Positions 55,413-61,656 of a stretch of DNA of 64,000 nt are shown piece by piece. Every line of letters begins with the position of its first letter. The first letter of the stretch is position 1. The stretch is taken from positions 62,001 to 126,000 of the forward strand of contig PHEY01000004.1 of NCBI GenBank assembly GCA_002841335.1, given 5' to 3'. The position numbers were made by a program, and so were the translations under genes. The notes beneath the pieces are model-generated. The model saw only the letters and a program-made list of their open reading frames with translations. It did not search any database and was not told the DNA's origin. Origin of the DNA: Actinobacteria bacterium HGW-Actinobacteria-2 (GTDB taxonomy: Bacteria > Actinomycetota > Actinomycetes > Propionibacteriales > Propionibacteriaceae).

Positions 55413-55441
55413 TTGACTTAGGTGTGTAGACCCCTACACAC
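55413..55441 (+). promoter_or_regulatory. Candidate promoter with inverted repeat for the Y-RNA array
   Basis: TTGACT (55413-55418) and TACACA (55435-55440) are 16 bp apart; the expected start lies near 55447-55450, where the first Y-RNA stem begins. GTGTGTAG (55422-55429) and CTACACAC (55434-55441) form a perfect inverted repeat with a 4-nt spacer over spacer and -10 box, a natural operator position. Confidence 0.55.
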
Positions 55442-55449
55442 TTGTCTCT

Positions 55450-55578
55450 TGTCAGGCGGGCCGACGGTTGTCGGTTCTCAGGACTTGGTGATTCGAGGTT
55501 GAAGTCCTCGGCCCATTCGTGGGTAGCTCAACGCCAGAGCGCCAAGCGTCCGGTGGCCAACTCCACGTCCGCCCGACA
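55450..55578 (+). ncRNA. Y-RNA-like unit A with permuted tRNA-like module
   Basis: Closing stem TGTCAGGCGGGC (55450-55461)/GTCCGCCCGACA (55567-55578), 11 of 12 positions paired. Just inside is the shared motif GGGCCGA...GTCGGTT. The insert reads, in order: T-arm CGAGG-UUGAAGU-CCUCG (55494-55510), acceptor-like stem GCCCA-UUCG-UGGGU (55511-55524) and D-arm GCUC-AACGCCA-GAGC (55526-55540). The order T-arm, capped acceptor, D-arm is that of bacterial YrlA-type Y RNAs, whose tRNA-like domain binds the Ro60 orthologue complex. All pairings read directly; the RNA itself is inferred. Confidence 0.75.
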
Positions 55579-55589
55579 CACACAACTTC

Positions 55590-55729
55590 GTGAGGTCTGG
55601 GTGGGCCGGAGATCGTCGGTTACCACTCTTAATGGAACAGTGCGGGTTCGAGTCCCGTCGGCGCTTCGGCGTCGAAGCTCAACTGGCGAGCAATTCCGGC
55701 GGTCACACACACGTCCGCCCAGGCCTCAC
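55590..55729 (+). ncRNA. Y-RNA-like unit B with permuted tRNA-like module
   Basis: Closing stem GTGAGGTCTGGGTGGGC (55590-55606)/GTCCGCCCAGGCCTCAC (55713-55729), 17 bp, three of them G-U. Inside: motif GGGCCGG...GTCGGTTACC, T-arm CGGG-UUCGAGU-CCCG (55643-55657), acceptor-like stem CGGCGC-UUCG-GCGUCG (55659-55674), D-arm GCUC-AACUGGC-GAGC (55677-55691). It is the unit with the most canonical T-loop and D-arm. Eleven nucleotides separate it from unit A. Confidence 0.82.
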
Positions 55730-55730
55730 C

Positions 55731-55829
55731 GCAGTGGGCCGAAGTCATTCGGTTATCTGGCATCCACGGGTTCGAATCCCGAACGTGACGCTTGCGTCGC
55801 GCACTCCGGTGACACCACACGCCCACTGC
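55731..55829 (+). ncRNA. Y-RNA-like unit C with reduced tRNA-like module
   Basis: Closing stem GCAGTGGGC (55731-55739)/GCCCACTGC (55821-55829), 9 bp. Motif GGGCCGAAG...TTCGGTTATCT, strikingly like the conserved 5' strand of vertebrate Y RNAs. T-arm CGGG-UUCGAAU-CCCG (55767-55781), acceptor-like stem GUGACG-CUUG-CGUCGC (55785-55800) and only a short CAC-UCCG-GUG hairpin (55802-55811) in place of a D-arm. One nucleotide separates it from unit B. Confidence 0.8.
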
Positions 55830-55841
55830 ACCCACAGCGAT

Positions 55842-55934
55842 GCGAGGACGGGCCGAAGCGAATCGGTTACCTCTGTAAAAGGAACCGCCCGGCTTGGCCG
55901 GGCTATTCGGTGCGCAACACACGCCCGTCCTCGC
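55842..55934 (+). ncRNA. Y-RNA-like unit D, minimal form without T-arm
   Basis: Closing stem GCGAGGACGGGC (55842-55853)/GCCCGTCCTCGC (55923-55934), 12 perfect pairs. Motif GGGCCGAAG...ATCGGTTACCT, then a plain hairpin GCCCGGC-UUG-GCCGGGC in place of the tRNA-like part, and ACACAC just before the 3' stem strand, as in units B and C. It is 93 nt long and lies 38 nt before rsr. It resembles the compact metazoan Y-RNA layout. Confidence 0.78.
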
Positions 55935-55972: not shown

Positions 55973-57562
55973 ATGGACGTATTGAATTGGATCAGCTCGC
56001 GGCGCACGCCGCAGAGCGAAAAGGCTGATCCCCGACAGGTCGCCAACAGCGCAGGTGGGTACACCTTCGAGTTGGACGATCATGCGCGGCTTCGTCGGTT
56101 CCTCACCCTGGGTGTGGACGGCGGTACCTATTACGTCGGTGATCGGGCCCTGGCGCTCGACAACGCGGCCGTCCTGACCCGACTGGCCGTCGATGACCCG
56201 GAGGGGTTGGTCGCCACCATCGTGGAGATCTCTACCCAGGGTCGGGCACCCAAGCAGAACCCTGCGCTGTTCGCGTTGGCCTACGCGGCGTCCATTCCGG
56301 AGGCTGCACCGGCTGCGCTGGCCGCGCTGCCCCGGGTGGCCCGGACGGGCACGCACCTGTTTCTGTTCGCCGGCTACGTCGAGCAGTTTCGTGGCTGGGG
56401 TCGCGGGCTGCGTCGGGCAGTGGCGGATTGGTACACCACCAAGGACGCCGACGCGGTTGCCTACCAGGCGGTGAAGTACCGCCAGCGTGAGGGTTGGTCG
56501 CATCGAGACCTGTTGCGACTGGCTCACCCGGTAACGGCCGTGCCCGCACTGCGCGAGACCTTCGAGTGGATCCTGCGTGGTCAGGTGGGTGCCGAGGTGC
56601 CTGCGATCGTGTCCGGCTTTGCCGCTGCTCAGGAGGCCACGGATGTGGCCACCTGGACGCGACTGATCCGCGATCACGGCCTGGCCTGGGAGATGCTGCC
56701 CGATGCCGCGCTGAACGAGGCGGCGGTGTGGGATGCGCTGCTGGATTCCGGCATGCCGCAGACTGCGCTGATGCGTCAGCTGCCGCGACTGACTCGACTT
56801 GGTGTGCTGCCCGATTTGGGTGGACGCACCGCCGAGGTGGTCGCTCAGCTGACCGATGCCGACCGACTCCGCAAGGCGCGGGTGCACCCGGTGAACGTCC
56901 TGGTGGCACAGCGCACCTACTCCTCGGGCCGCTCGGCCCGCGGGGCGGGTGAATGGACGCCGACTCCGGCGATCGCCGACGCACTGGACGCTGCGTTCTA
57001 CGCGGCTTTCGGCGCGGTGCAGCCGTCGGGCAAGCGGACCATGCTGGGTGTCGACGTGTCCGGCTCGATGGGCTCGCCCATCTCGGGCATGCCGATCACC
57101 GCTCGGGAGGCCTCGGCCGCCCTGGCATTGGTGCAGCTGGCCACCGAGCCGTCCGCAGCGGCGTACGGGTTCGCGGCCGCCTTGGGTGGCTGGGGTCGCA
57201 CGCAGCTGAAGCCGCTGGGCATCTCGCCGCGTCGCCGGTTGGACGACGCCCTGAAGGTGATCGACGCGATGCCGTTCGGTGGCACCGATTGCGCGCTGCC
57301 GATGGTGTACGCGGCTCGGGAAGGCTTGGAGGTGGACACCTTCGTGGTCTACACCGACAACGAAACCTGGGCCGGGAACGTGCACCCGCATCAAGCGCTG
57401 CGGGACTACCGCGAGCAGACCGGAATCCCGGCCAAGCTCGTGGTGGTGGGCATGACCTCGACGGGGTTCAGCATCGCCGATCCCAATGACGCGGGCATGC
57501 TCGACATCGCCGGGTTCGACGCAGCCGTGCCGAACCTGATCACGGAGTTCGCTGGTGCCTGA
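55973..57562 (+). CDS. rsr: TROVE-domain protein, bacterial Ro60 orthologue (Rsr)
   Basis: A 529-residue RNA-binding ring protein. Residues ~28-340 are the TROVE HEAT-repeat ring (GGYTFELDDHARLRRFLTLG, DNAAVLTRL, MLPDAALNEAAVWDALLDSG); the C-terminus is a von Willebrand A domain with MIDAS Asp361-x-Ser-x-Ser in GVDVSGSMGS and later VYTDNETWAG. Ro60 proteins bind misfolded non-coding RNAs and Y RNAs, and in Deinococcus work with PNPase in rRNA maturation and stress RNA decay. ATG 55973 follows AAAGGAGG. The open frame continues upstream to 55442, but that part encodes the four Y-RNA-like units and must not be called protein. Its stop overlaps the next gene. Confidence 0.93.
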   Translation: MDVLNWISSRRTPQSEKADPRQVANSAGGYTFELDDHARLRRFLTLGVDGGTYYVGDRALALDNAAVLTRLAVDDPEGLVATIVEISTQGRAPKQNPALFALAYAASIPEAAPAALAALPRVARTGTHLFLFAGYVEQFRGWGRGLRRAVADWYTTKDADAVAYQAVKYRQREGWSHRDLLRLAHPVTAVPALRETFEWILRGQVGAEVPAIVSGFAAAQEATDVATWTRLIRDHGLAWEMLPDAALNEAAVWDALLDSGMPQTALMRQLPRLTRLGVLPDLGGRTAEVVAQLTDADRLRKARVHPVNVLVAQRTYSSGRSARGAGEWTPTPAIADALDAAFYAAFGAVQPSGKRTMLGVDVSGSMGSPISGMPITAREASAALALVQLATEPSAAAYGFAAALGGWGRTQLKPLGISPRRRLDDALKVIDAMPFGGTDCALPMVYAAREGLEVDTFVVYTDNETWAGNVHPHQALRDYREQTGIPAKLVVVGMTSTGFSIADPNDAGMLDIAGFDAAVPNLITEFAGA

Positions 57563-57836
57563 GCGGCGCAAAGATGGCGGTACCCCCACGCGGGGTGCCG
57601 CCATTCGGCGTTCCGGGGGCACCTCCGACGCCCGCGCCGCGCGTGCCCGCGAACTCCATCGCAAAGCAGTCGAAGCCGACGAGTTGGCAGCTCGGCTTCG
57701 CGCAGAACGCGACCAGCTGATTCGTCGCCTGCGCGCCGAAGACCCCCAGAGGTGGTCGTACGGGGCGCTGGCGGCGGCTTTGGGCTGCAGTCGCGAGCTC
57801 ATCGCGCTGGTGGCCAAGCGCGGCGAAGCGTCCTAG
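57555..57836 (+). CDS. Small basic helix-turn-helix-like protein coupled to rsr
   Basis: A 93-residue protein whose GTG start lies inside the last codons of rsr (8-nt overlap). The N-terminal half is basic and disordered, the middle a charged helix (ARARELHRKAVEADELAARL), and the C-terminus RWSYGALAAALGCSRELIAL resembles a helix-turn-helix. Overlap with rsr implies co-expression. It could regulate the array promoter or bind RNA; neither is shown. I know of no named family. Confidence 0.55.
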   Translation: MPERRKDGGTPTRGAAIRRSGGTSDARAARARELHRKAVEADELAARLRAERDQLIRRLRAEDPQRWSYGALAAALGCSRELIALVAKRGEAS

Positions 57837-61586: not shown

Positions 61587-61618
61587 GCTGTTCGCAGCCC
61601 ACTGAATAACTGACAACC

Positions 61619-61656
61619 GTCGGCCCGGGTGCCTCACATGTGGCACCCGGGCCGAC
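61619..61656 (+). terminator. Attenuating hairpin between binding protein and ATPase genes
   Basis: GTCGGCCCGGGTGCC (61619-61633) pairs perfectly over 15 bp with GGCACCCGGGCCGAC (61642-61656), loop of 8. There is no T-tract and the ATPase gene follows in the same direction, so partial termination or 3'-end protection of the upstream message is the likely role. Confidence 0.65.

What the first reader, a model, noticed from the sequence alone, without database searches (positions are those of the whole stretch)
55450..55934. Four tandem Y-RNA-like units directly upstream of a Ro60 (rsr) gene
Between 55450 and 55934 there are four consecutive units, each closed by a perfect or nearly perfect stem of 9-17 bp (see features A-D) and each containing, just inside the stem, the motif GGGCCGR.....NTCGGTT. 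Units C and D read GGGCCGAAG...CGGTTAYCT, close to the conserved strand of metazoan Y RNAs. Spacers are 11, 1 and 12 nt, so they are most simply made from one precursor. The next gene is a TROVE protein. Bacterial Y RNAs next to rsr are known, usually one or two; an array of four with graded complexity is unusual to my knowledge, but I cannot check the literature. It suggests an RNA-sorting system with several alternative guide or adaptor RNAs for one ring protein.
Basis: partly seen in the sequence, partly recalled or inferred. Interest (0 to 1): 0.95.

Follow-up and report, generated by a model that had tools for sequence, protein, structure and literature searches.

The report
Four-Y-RNA array upstream of Ro60 gene
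An actinobacterium carries, just before its Ro60-like ring protein gene, four different small RNAs of the bacterial Y RNA kind (two full imitations of tRNA, one half imitation, one without), and the set appears to be switched by a small, previously unremarked DNA-binding protein encoded right after the ring gene.

Summary
Confirmed: window 55450-55934 holds four tandem structured RNA units upstream of an Rsr/Ro60 gene (55973-57562). Coordinates, stems (12, 17, 9, 12 bp) and spacers (11, 1, 12 nt) are as stated. A covariance model built from relatives finds the four units and nothing else convincing in the window. The stems covary strongly across 74 nonredundant units. A and B carry a permuted tRNA mimic (T arm, capped acceptor arm, D arm), C a T arm only, D neither. 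They are bacterial Y RNAs of the YrlA kind, too divergent for Rfam's cutoff.

Not supported: that four is unusual. Of 50 related actinobacterial rsr loci, 25 have at least three units and 11 have four; an M. abscessus prophage has at least five. The "guide/adaptor" idea is only inference.

Beyond the finding: a palindrome GTGTA-N6-TACAC overlaps the array's predicted promoter, and a 93-codon helix-turn-helix gene overlaps the end of rsr. The two occur together or are both missing across actinobacteria and several phages, so the HTH protein is the likely dedicated regulator. Unit A's lineage shows a compensatory C19-G56 swap at the tRNA-elbow tertiary contact. No expression or binding data were available.

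The parts
55414..55441 (+). Predicted promoter of the array: TTGACT (55414-55419), 16-nt spacer, TACACA (55436-55441); predicted start about at the first base of unit A
   Evidence: Read from sequence; same layout in L005-L007. The strict sigma-70 scan did not call it, so inferred
55422..55441 (.). Perfect palindrome GTGTGTAG-ACCC-CTACACAC, putative operator overlapping the predicted -10
   Evidence: Only exact GTGTAGNNNNCTACAC in the 2.9-Mb genome; conserved before the arrays of relatives
55450..55578 (+). Y RNA unit A: 12-bp stem, Ro-type internal loop, full permuted tRNA mimic (T arm, acceptor hairpin with UUCG loop, D arm), with C19-G56 swap
   Evidence: YrlA 24 bits; 83.7 bits
55590..55729 (+). 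Y RNA unit B: 17-bp stem, full permuted tRNA mimic
   Evidence: z -4.8; YrlA 27.4 bits; 109.3 bits; called tRNA when re-permuted
55731..55829 (+). Y RNA unit C: 9-bp stem, T arm and acceptor-like hairpin, no D arm
   Evidence: 40.9 bits
55842..55934 (+). Y RNA unit D: 12-bp perfect stem, no tRNA-like domain
   Evidence: z -4.8; 52.5 bits
55973..57562 (+). rsr (Ro60 orthologue), TROVE + vWA, 529 aa
57555..57836 (+). Small HTH protein gene (93 codons), GTG start overlapping the rsr stop; proposed regulator of the array

Best explanation
The four units are bacterial Y RNAs of the YrlA kind, transcribed as one precursor with rsr from a promoter at about 55414-55441 and cut or trimmed into separate RNAs. 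Each binds the Rsr ring through its closing stem and the conserved internal loop (GGGC-CGR on one side, CAC on the other). The inner part differs: A and B carry a permuted tRNA mimic, C a T-arm-only version, D none, so one ring protein can be dressed with RNAs that do or do not attract tRNA-binding or nuclease partners such as PNPase. The operon is controlled by the small HTH protein encoded at its 3' end, acting on the palindrome over the promoter, most likely as a repressor. Shown here: the units, their conservation and covariation, adjacency to rsr, the tRNA-like domain, and the co-occurrence of operator and HTH gene. Inferred: transcription, processing, Rsr and PNPase binding, repression.
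For: Linkage: in a sample of 197 genomes of the order, 17 of 18 with TROVE also have the RNA model; the 4 RNA-only genomes have weak hits, E>=1e-4. In 51 actinobacterial rsr loci (464 kb, both strands) all 132 hits at E<=1e-3 lie upstream of rsr on its strand (the model was built from some of these units). Covariation: outer stem pairs fully formed in 84% of units against 13.5% with non-cognate 3' strands; inner stem 0/300 permutations; RNAalifold 31 pairs, 19 with double changes, D type 19 pairs, 7. tRNA mimic: put back in tRNA order with a fixed anticodon arm, 52 of 58 are called tRNA by ARAGORN, 0 of 58 with the halves shuffled; D-loop/T-loop partners 19-56 are G-C in 54 units and C-G in 4 related ones. 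Rsr: vWA and TROVE, human H187 position conserved (role of H187 from PMC4030889). PNPase gene present. Precedent: Ro60 RNPs of Propionibacterium propionicum, now Arachnia, contain Y RNAs (PMC11277228); Arachnia loci L020/L024 have four-unit arrays. Regulator: operator and HTH gene co-occur (palindrome score 9 or more: 23 both, 0 operator only, 2 HTH only with weaker sites, 25 neither; p=6e-12 ignoring kinship), 6 concordant changes on the rsr tree, phages.
Against: No transcript, binding or processing data. No promoter passed the consensus scan. Rfam YrlA scores stay far below its cutoff (24-27 bits against 69). Unit A is not called tRNA when re-permuted. On well-supported branches only 3 independent operator/HTH contrasts remain (sign test p=0.25), and three operator labels (L013, L028, L040) were judged partly by eye. 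The prophage in L097 has the HTH gene but no clear operator close to its array.
Confidence: 0.85

Rival explanations
1. Only one or two units (B, perhaps D) are working Y RNAs; A and C are decaying duplicates kept by tandem duplication.
For: A has an odd T loop and is not called tRNA when permuted; C lacks the D arm; in L005 unit B has lost its whole tRNA domain.
Against: A's odd T loop is matched by a compensatory D-loop change; A and C stems beat shuffles; the order full, full, half, none is kept in L003, L004, L006 and L011; T-only units occur widely.
Confidence: 0.12
2. The region acts mainly in cis: a structured 5' leader controlling rsr expression rather than a source of separate RNAs.
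For: It lies directly upstream of rsr with no terminator found between them and a good ribosome-binding site after it.
Against: tRNA mimicry, Ro-type internal loop, known trans-acting Y RNAs next to rsr in other bacteria, variable unit number; in L080 the units lie downstream of rsr and in phage Sixama some lie downstream among tRNA genes.
Confidence: 0.05
3. The palindrome is not an operator of the HTH protein; both are just inherited together as part of one operon type, and the HTH protein does something else, such as an RNP accessory role.
For: Kinship explains part of the correlation; Foldseek finds no significant match for the HTH model (E>0.4).
Against: Operator and HTH gene change together at 6 points of the rsr tree (3 well-supported contrasts) and in phages; the site overlaps the predicted -10 in many loci; a single exact site in the genome suggests a dedicated regulator.
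Confidence: 0.25

Closest known systems
YrlA-type bacterial Y RNAs (Rfam RF02553; Salmonella YrlA/YrlB, M. smegmatis Y RNAs)
   Same: Long closing stem, permuted tRNA-like domain with T arm, capped acceptor arm and D arm, gene next to rsr (PMC8394870, PMC4726728, PMC7790460)
   Different: Sequence too far for Rfam's cutoff (24-27 bits against 69); four units in tandem, one with half a mimic and one with none; no RtcBA genes seen next to the array; a linked HTH gene and operator
Deinococcus radiodurans Y RNA / RYPER (Rsr-Y RNA-PNPase)
   Same: Rsr orthologue (E=4e-120) and PNPase gene present; Y RNA expected to tether the ring to the exonuclease
   Different: Tethering untested here; several Y RNAs of different make-up
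Metazoan Y RNAs and nematode stem-bulge RNAs
   Same: Strand GGNCCGAAG...GGTTAYC and 3' CAC loop at the Ro60 site (comparison with human Y RNA from my own knowledge; sub-threshold Rfam hit of unit C to nematode sbRNAs)
   Different: Upper domain unrelated; homology not established
Ro-like RNA-binding protein loci of actinobacteriophages
   Same: rsr with Y RNA units upstream; some have the same HTH gene and palindrome
   Different: Borne by phages; most phage loci lack the HTH gene (6 of 340 records have it)

Membership tests
Bacterial Y RNA (YrlA kind) | 5' and 3' ends paired in a long stem | tested here: met
   Stems 9-17 bp, covarying across 74 units
Bacterial Y RNA (YrlA kind) | Gene next to rsr | tested here: met
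   All 132 model hits at E<=1e-3 in 51 loci are upstream of rsr; 17 of 18 TROVE genomes of the order
Bacterial Y RNA (YrlA kind) | tRNA-like domain in at least one Y RNA | tested here: met
   A and B; ARAGORN on re-permuted units 52/58 against 0/58 shuffled, elbow pair 19-56
Bacterial Y RNA (YrlA kind) | Conserved unpaired C and internal loop at the Ro-binding site | tested here: met
   C and G after the stem invariant in 74/74 units; C-A before the 3' stem strand in more than 90%
Bacterial Y RNA (YrlA kind) | Rfam RF02553 gathering score | tested here: not met
   27.4 and 24 bits against 69; fourteen related loci also unmatched. This is the cutoff of one model, not a biological feature
Bacterial Y RNA (YrlA kind) | Small stable RNA bound to Rsr | not testable with these tools
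   Reported by others for a near relative, P. propionicum (PMC11277228)
RYPER | Y RNA tethers Rsr to PNPase | not testable with these tools
   PNPase gene present, 851 bits
Ro60/Rsr protein | TROVE ring plus vWA; Y-RNA-contact His187 | tested here: met
rsr-rtcBA RNA repair operon | rtcB/rtcA next to rsr | tested here: not met
   Neighbours are a DUF222/HNH gene, the small HTH gene, and YjjI/YjjW-like genes

The most novel reading that the evidence does not exclude
Actinobacterial Y RNA arrays are a regulated module: a dedicated HTH repressor, encoded after rsr and overlapping its stop codon, binds one palindrome at the array promoter, and the array supplies a graded set of tRNA mimics (full, half, none) that switch one Ro60 ring between different partners. 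The same module moves in phages.
Probability: 0.35. Interest if true: 0.75.

Novelty: new variant of a known kind. Interest (0 to 1): 0.55.

Why it matters
Why one Ro60 ring needs several Y RNAs is an open question in animals and bacteria. Here the alternatives sit side by side in a compact, genetically simple operon, in relatives of an oral and skin commensal whose Ro60 RNPs react with lupus sera, and the likely switch for the whole set is named and can be tested with one purified protein and one DNA oligo. The covariance model and alignments also cover a large group of Y RNAs that Rfam's model does not call.

Tried and rejected
Rfam gathering scan and ARAGORN on the window: nothing. The strict sigma-70 scan found no promoter. 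A first motif search with the wrong spacer length found nothing and was repeated with N6. The one-mismatch motif at 61608-61626 minus is not hit by the covariance model and is taken as chance. A scripted 'unit' at -848 inside the DUF222 gene was discarded as a false positive. The terminator-like call on the palindrome was set aside because no + strand gene lies just upstream and the site overlaps the predicted promoter. Chen 2014, Sim and Wolin 2018, Wang 2018 and Chen 2013 are not held, so published unit numbers per species could not be checked. A GntR/YtrA-type regulator was first suspected from the palindrome; the linked HTH gene made a better candidate.

Full report
WHAT IS THERE. The motif GGGCCGR-N6-TCGGTT occurs exactly four times in the 64-kb window, all here (0.39 expected even with one mismatch). 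B and D fold far better than dinucleotide shuffles (z -4.8 each), A and C moderately (z -2.3 and -2.1). Each closing stem beats shuffled sequence. Thirty-nine bases after D starts a 529-aa TROVE + Ro60-vWA protein, best solved relative D. radiodurans Rsr.

RELATIVES. A scan of 84,980 species genomes with the Rsr protein gave 80 loci; nearly all actinobacterial ones carry the motif upstream of rsr. I extracted 119 units from actinobacterial loci, 74 of them nonredundant. The two bases after the stem (C, G) are invariant and the opposite strand carries CA before the stem in more than nine of ten. Outer stem pairs are fully formed in 84% of units but in 13.5% when 5' strands are combined with 3' strands of other units; the inner stem beats all 300 permutations. 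The 3' strand was chosen by pairing, which favours the cognate score, but shuffled controls give a mean of 19 against 36 on the same score. RNAalifold finds 31 pairs, 19 with double changes, for tRNA-bearing units, and 19 pairs, 7 with double changes, for the D type.

MODEL. A covariance model from 33 units (including A and B, not C or D) finds A-D at 83.7, 109.3, 40.9 and 52.5 bits; the next window hit is 15.5 bits. Over 51 actinobacterial loci, 132 hits at E<=1e-3 all lie upstream of rsr on its strand. By locus: 4 have one unit, 21 two, 14 three, 11 four, and one contig is cut off. Four units is therefore common here. Loci from Armatimonadetes, Chloroflexi, Bradyrhizobium and Acetobacteraceae also give hits. 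Of 197 genomes of the order, 18 have TROVE and 17 of these have the RNA; four genomes have weak RNA hits without TROVE. Rfam's YrlA model touches A and B at 24 and 27 bits against a cutoff of 69 and calls none of the related loci.

tRNA MIMICRY. A and B carry, in this order, a T arm, an acceptor-like hairpin capped by UUCG, and a D arm, the permuted tRNA layout of YrlA (structure described in PMC8394870). With the halves put back in tRNA order around a fixed anticodon arm, 52 of 58 such units are called tRNA by ARAGORN, against 0 of 58 with shuffled halves and 2 of 58 raw. The elbow contact between D-loop base 19 and T-loop base 56 is G-C in 54 of 60 units; in unit A and its orthologues in L003, L004 and L005 both sides have changed, to C and G. 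This is one lineage event, but a double change at a tertiary contact is what a kept L-shape predicts. Unit C has the T arm only; its class keeps a nearly invariant GG before the T arm, which might replace the D-loop GG (speculation). Unit D has neither arm. The order full, full, half, none recurs in L003, L004, L006 and L011.

CONTROL OF THE ARRAY (outside the finding). Just before unit A lies the perfect palindrome GTGTGTAG-ACCC-CTACACAC (55422-55441) between and over TTGACT and TACACA, which put the start of transcription about at unit A's first base. GTGTAGNNNNCTACAC occurs exactly once in the genome. The 14-mer TGTAGACCCCTACA recurs before arrays in Propionibacteriaceae, Nocardioides and Cellulomonas, with variants in Actinomyces, Arachnia and Micropruina, and is missing in most Nocardia. 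A 93-codon gene starts inside the rsr stop region (GTG at 57555) and is conserved after rsr. Among 50 loci with enough flank, those with a palindrome scoring 9 or 10 of 10 all have this gene (23); 2 have the gene with a weaker site; 25 have neither. A divergent copy in L040, missed by tblastn, also goes with a palindrome. On the rsr tree both traits change 6 times, always together; only 3 of these contrasts rest on well-supported branches, so kinship is not fully excluded. Three palindrome labels (L013, L028, L040) were judged partly by eye.

PHAGES. 340 phage records encode a Ro-like protein. Only 6 phage records carry the small gene, each time right after the Ro-like gene. Cashline, BearBQ, Farewell and Sparky have it together with a palindrome just before their first Y RNA; LinStu, which lacks it, has no such palindrome. 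The M. abscessus prophage GD43A-5 has the gene and at least five Y units but no clear palindrome beside the array. In the order sample the small gene occurs in 10 of 197 genomes, 8 of them beside rsr. AlphaFold gives a long helix followed by a helix-turn-helix with high confidence in the core; Foldseek points to AsnC-type and sigma-4 HTH folds but without significant E-values. I take this protein to be the array's regulator, most likely a repressor since the site overlaps the predicted -10.

HOW IT PROBABLY WORKS. One precursor yields four RNAs that compete for or share the Rsr ring. By analogy with D. radiodurans RYPER (PMC8394870, PMC4726728) the Y RNA tethers Rsr to PNPase, whose gene this genome has. 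Units with and without the tRNA mimic would give rings with different partners. None of the steps after DNA was tested here. The nearest experimental support is that Ro60 RNPs of Propionibacterium propionicum contain Y RNAs (PMC11277228); Arachnia propionica loci L020 and L024 have four-unit arrays.

VERDICT. The claim that four is unusual is not. What may be new is the operator-HTH module and the conserved graded set of mimics; the key reviews and the 2014 survey of bacterial Y RNAs are not in the library, so novelty is judged with that gap. None of the titles and abstracts returned by ten literature searches (the last), nor the passages read, describes such a regulator.

Noticed in passing
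window 57555-57836: Small HTH gene overlapping the rsr stop, conserved almost only next to rsr in bacteria and in six phage records; likely the regulator of the array.
   Followed up: yes
L097 600-1476 (Mycobacterium phage prophiGD43A-5): Five model hits and a sixth unit seen by eye upstream of the phage Ro-like gene; the unit at 752 overlaps an annotated tRNA-Thr(tgt), so a Y RNA is probably annotated as a tRNA.
   Followed up: partly
L098 3921-4521 (Gordonia phage Sixama): Y RNA model hits lie between tRNA genes downstream of the Ro-like gene.
   Followed up: no
L005 695-774: The orthologue of unit B has lost its tRNA-like domain while keeping the Ro-binding stem.
   Followed up: partly
L080 6081-6884 (Chloroflexi): Four Y RNA model hits downstream rather than upstream of rsr; one reaches Rfam's tRNA cutoff (29.3 bits).
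   Followed up: no
window 61608-61626 (-): One-mismatch copy of the unit A motif between a BMP-type lipoprotein gene and an ABC transporter gene; not hit by the covariance model, probably chance.
   Followed up: partly
genome G159, contigs C29 79535-79608 and C39 707-904: A weak partial Y RNA model hit and the HTH gene are present without a detected TROVE gene; perhaps an assembly break through rsr.
   Followed up: no
L026 3330 and before unit 3: Micropruina SSC1 has two palindromes (GTGTAACGCGTTACAC and CTGTAATGCGTTACAG), one before unit 1 and one before unit 3, suggesting two transcripts under one regulator.
   Followed up: no
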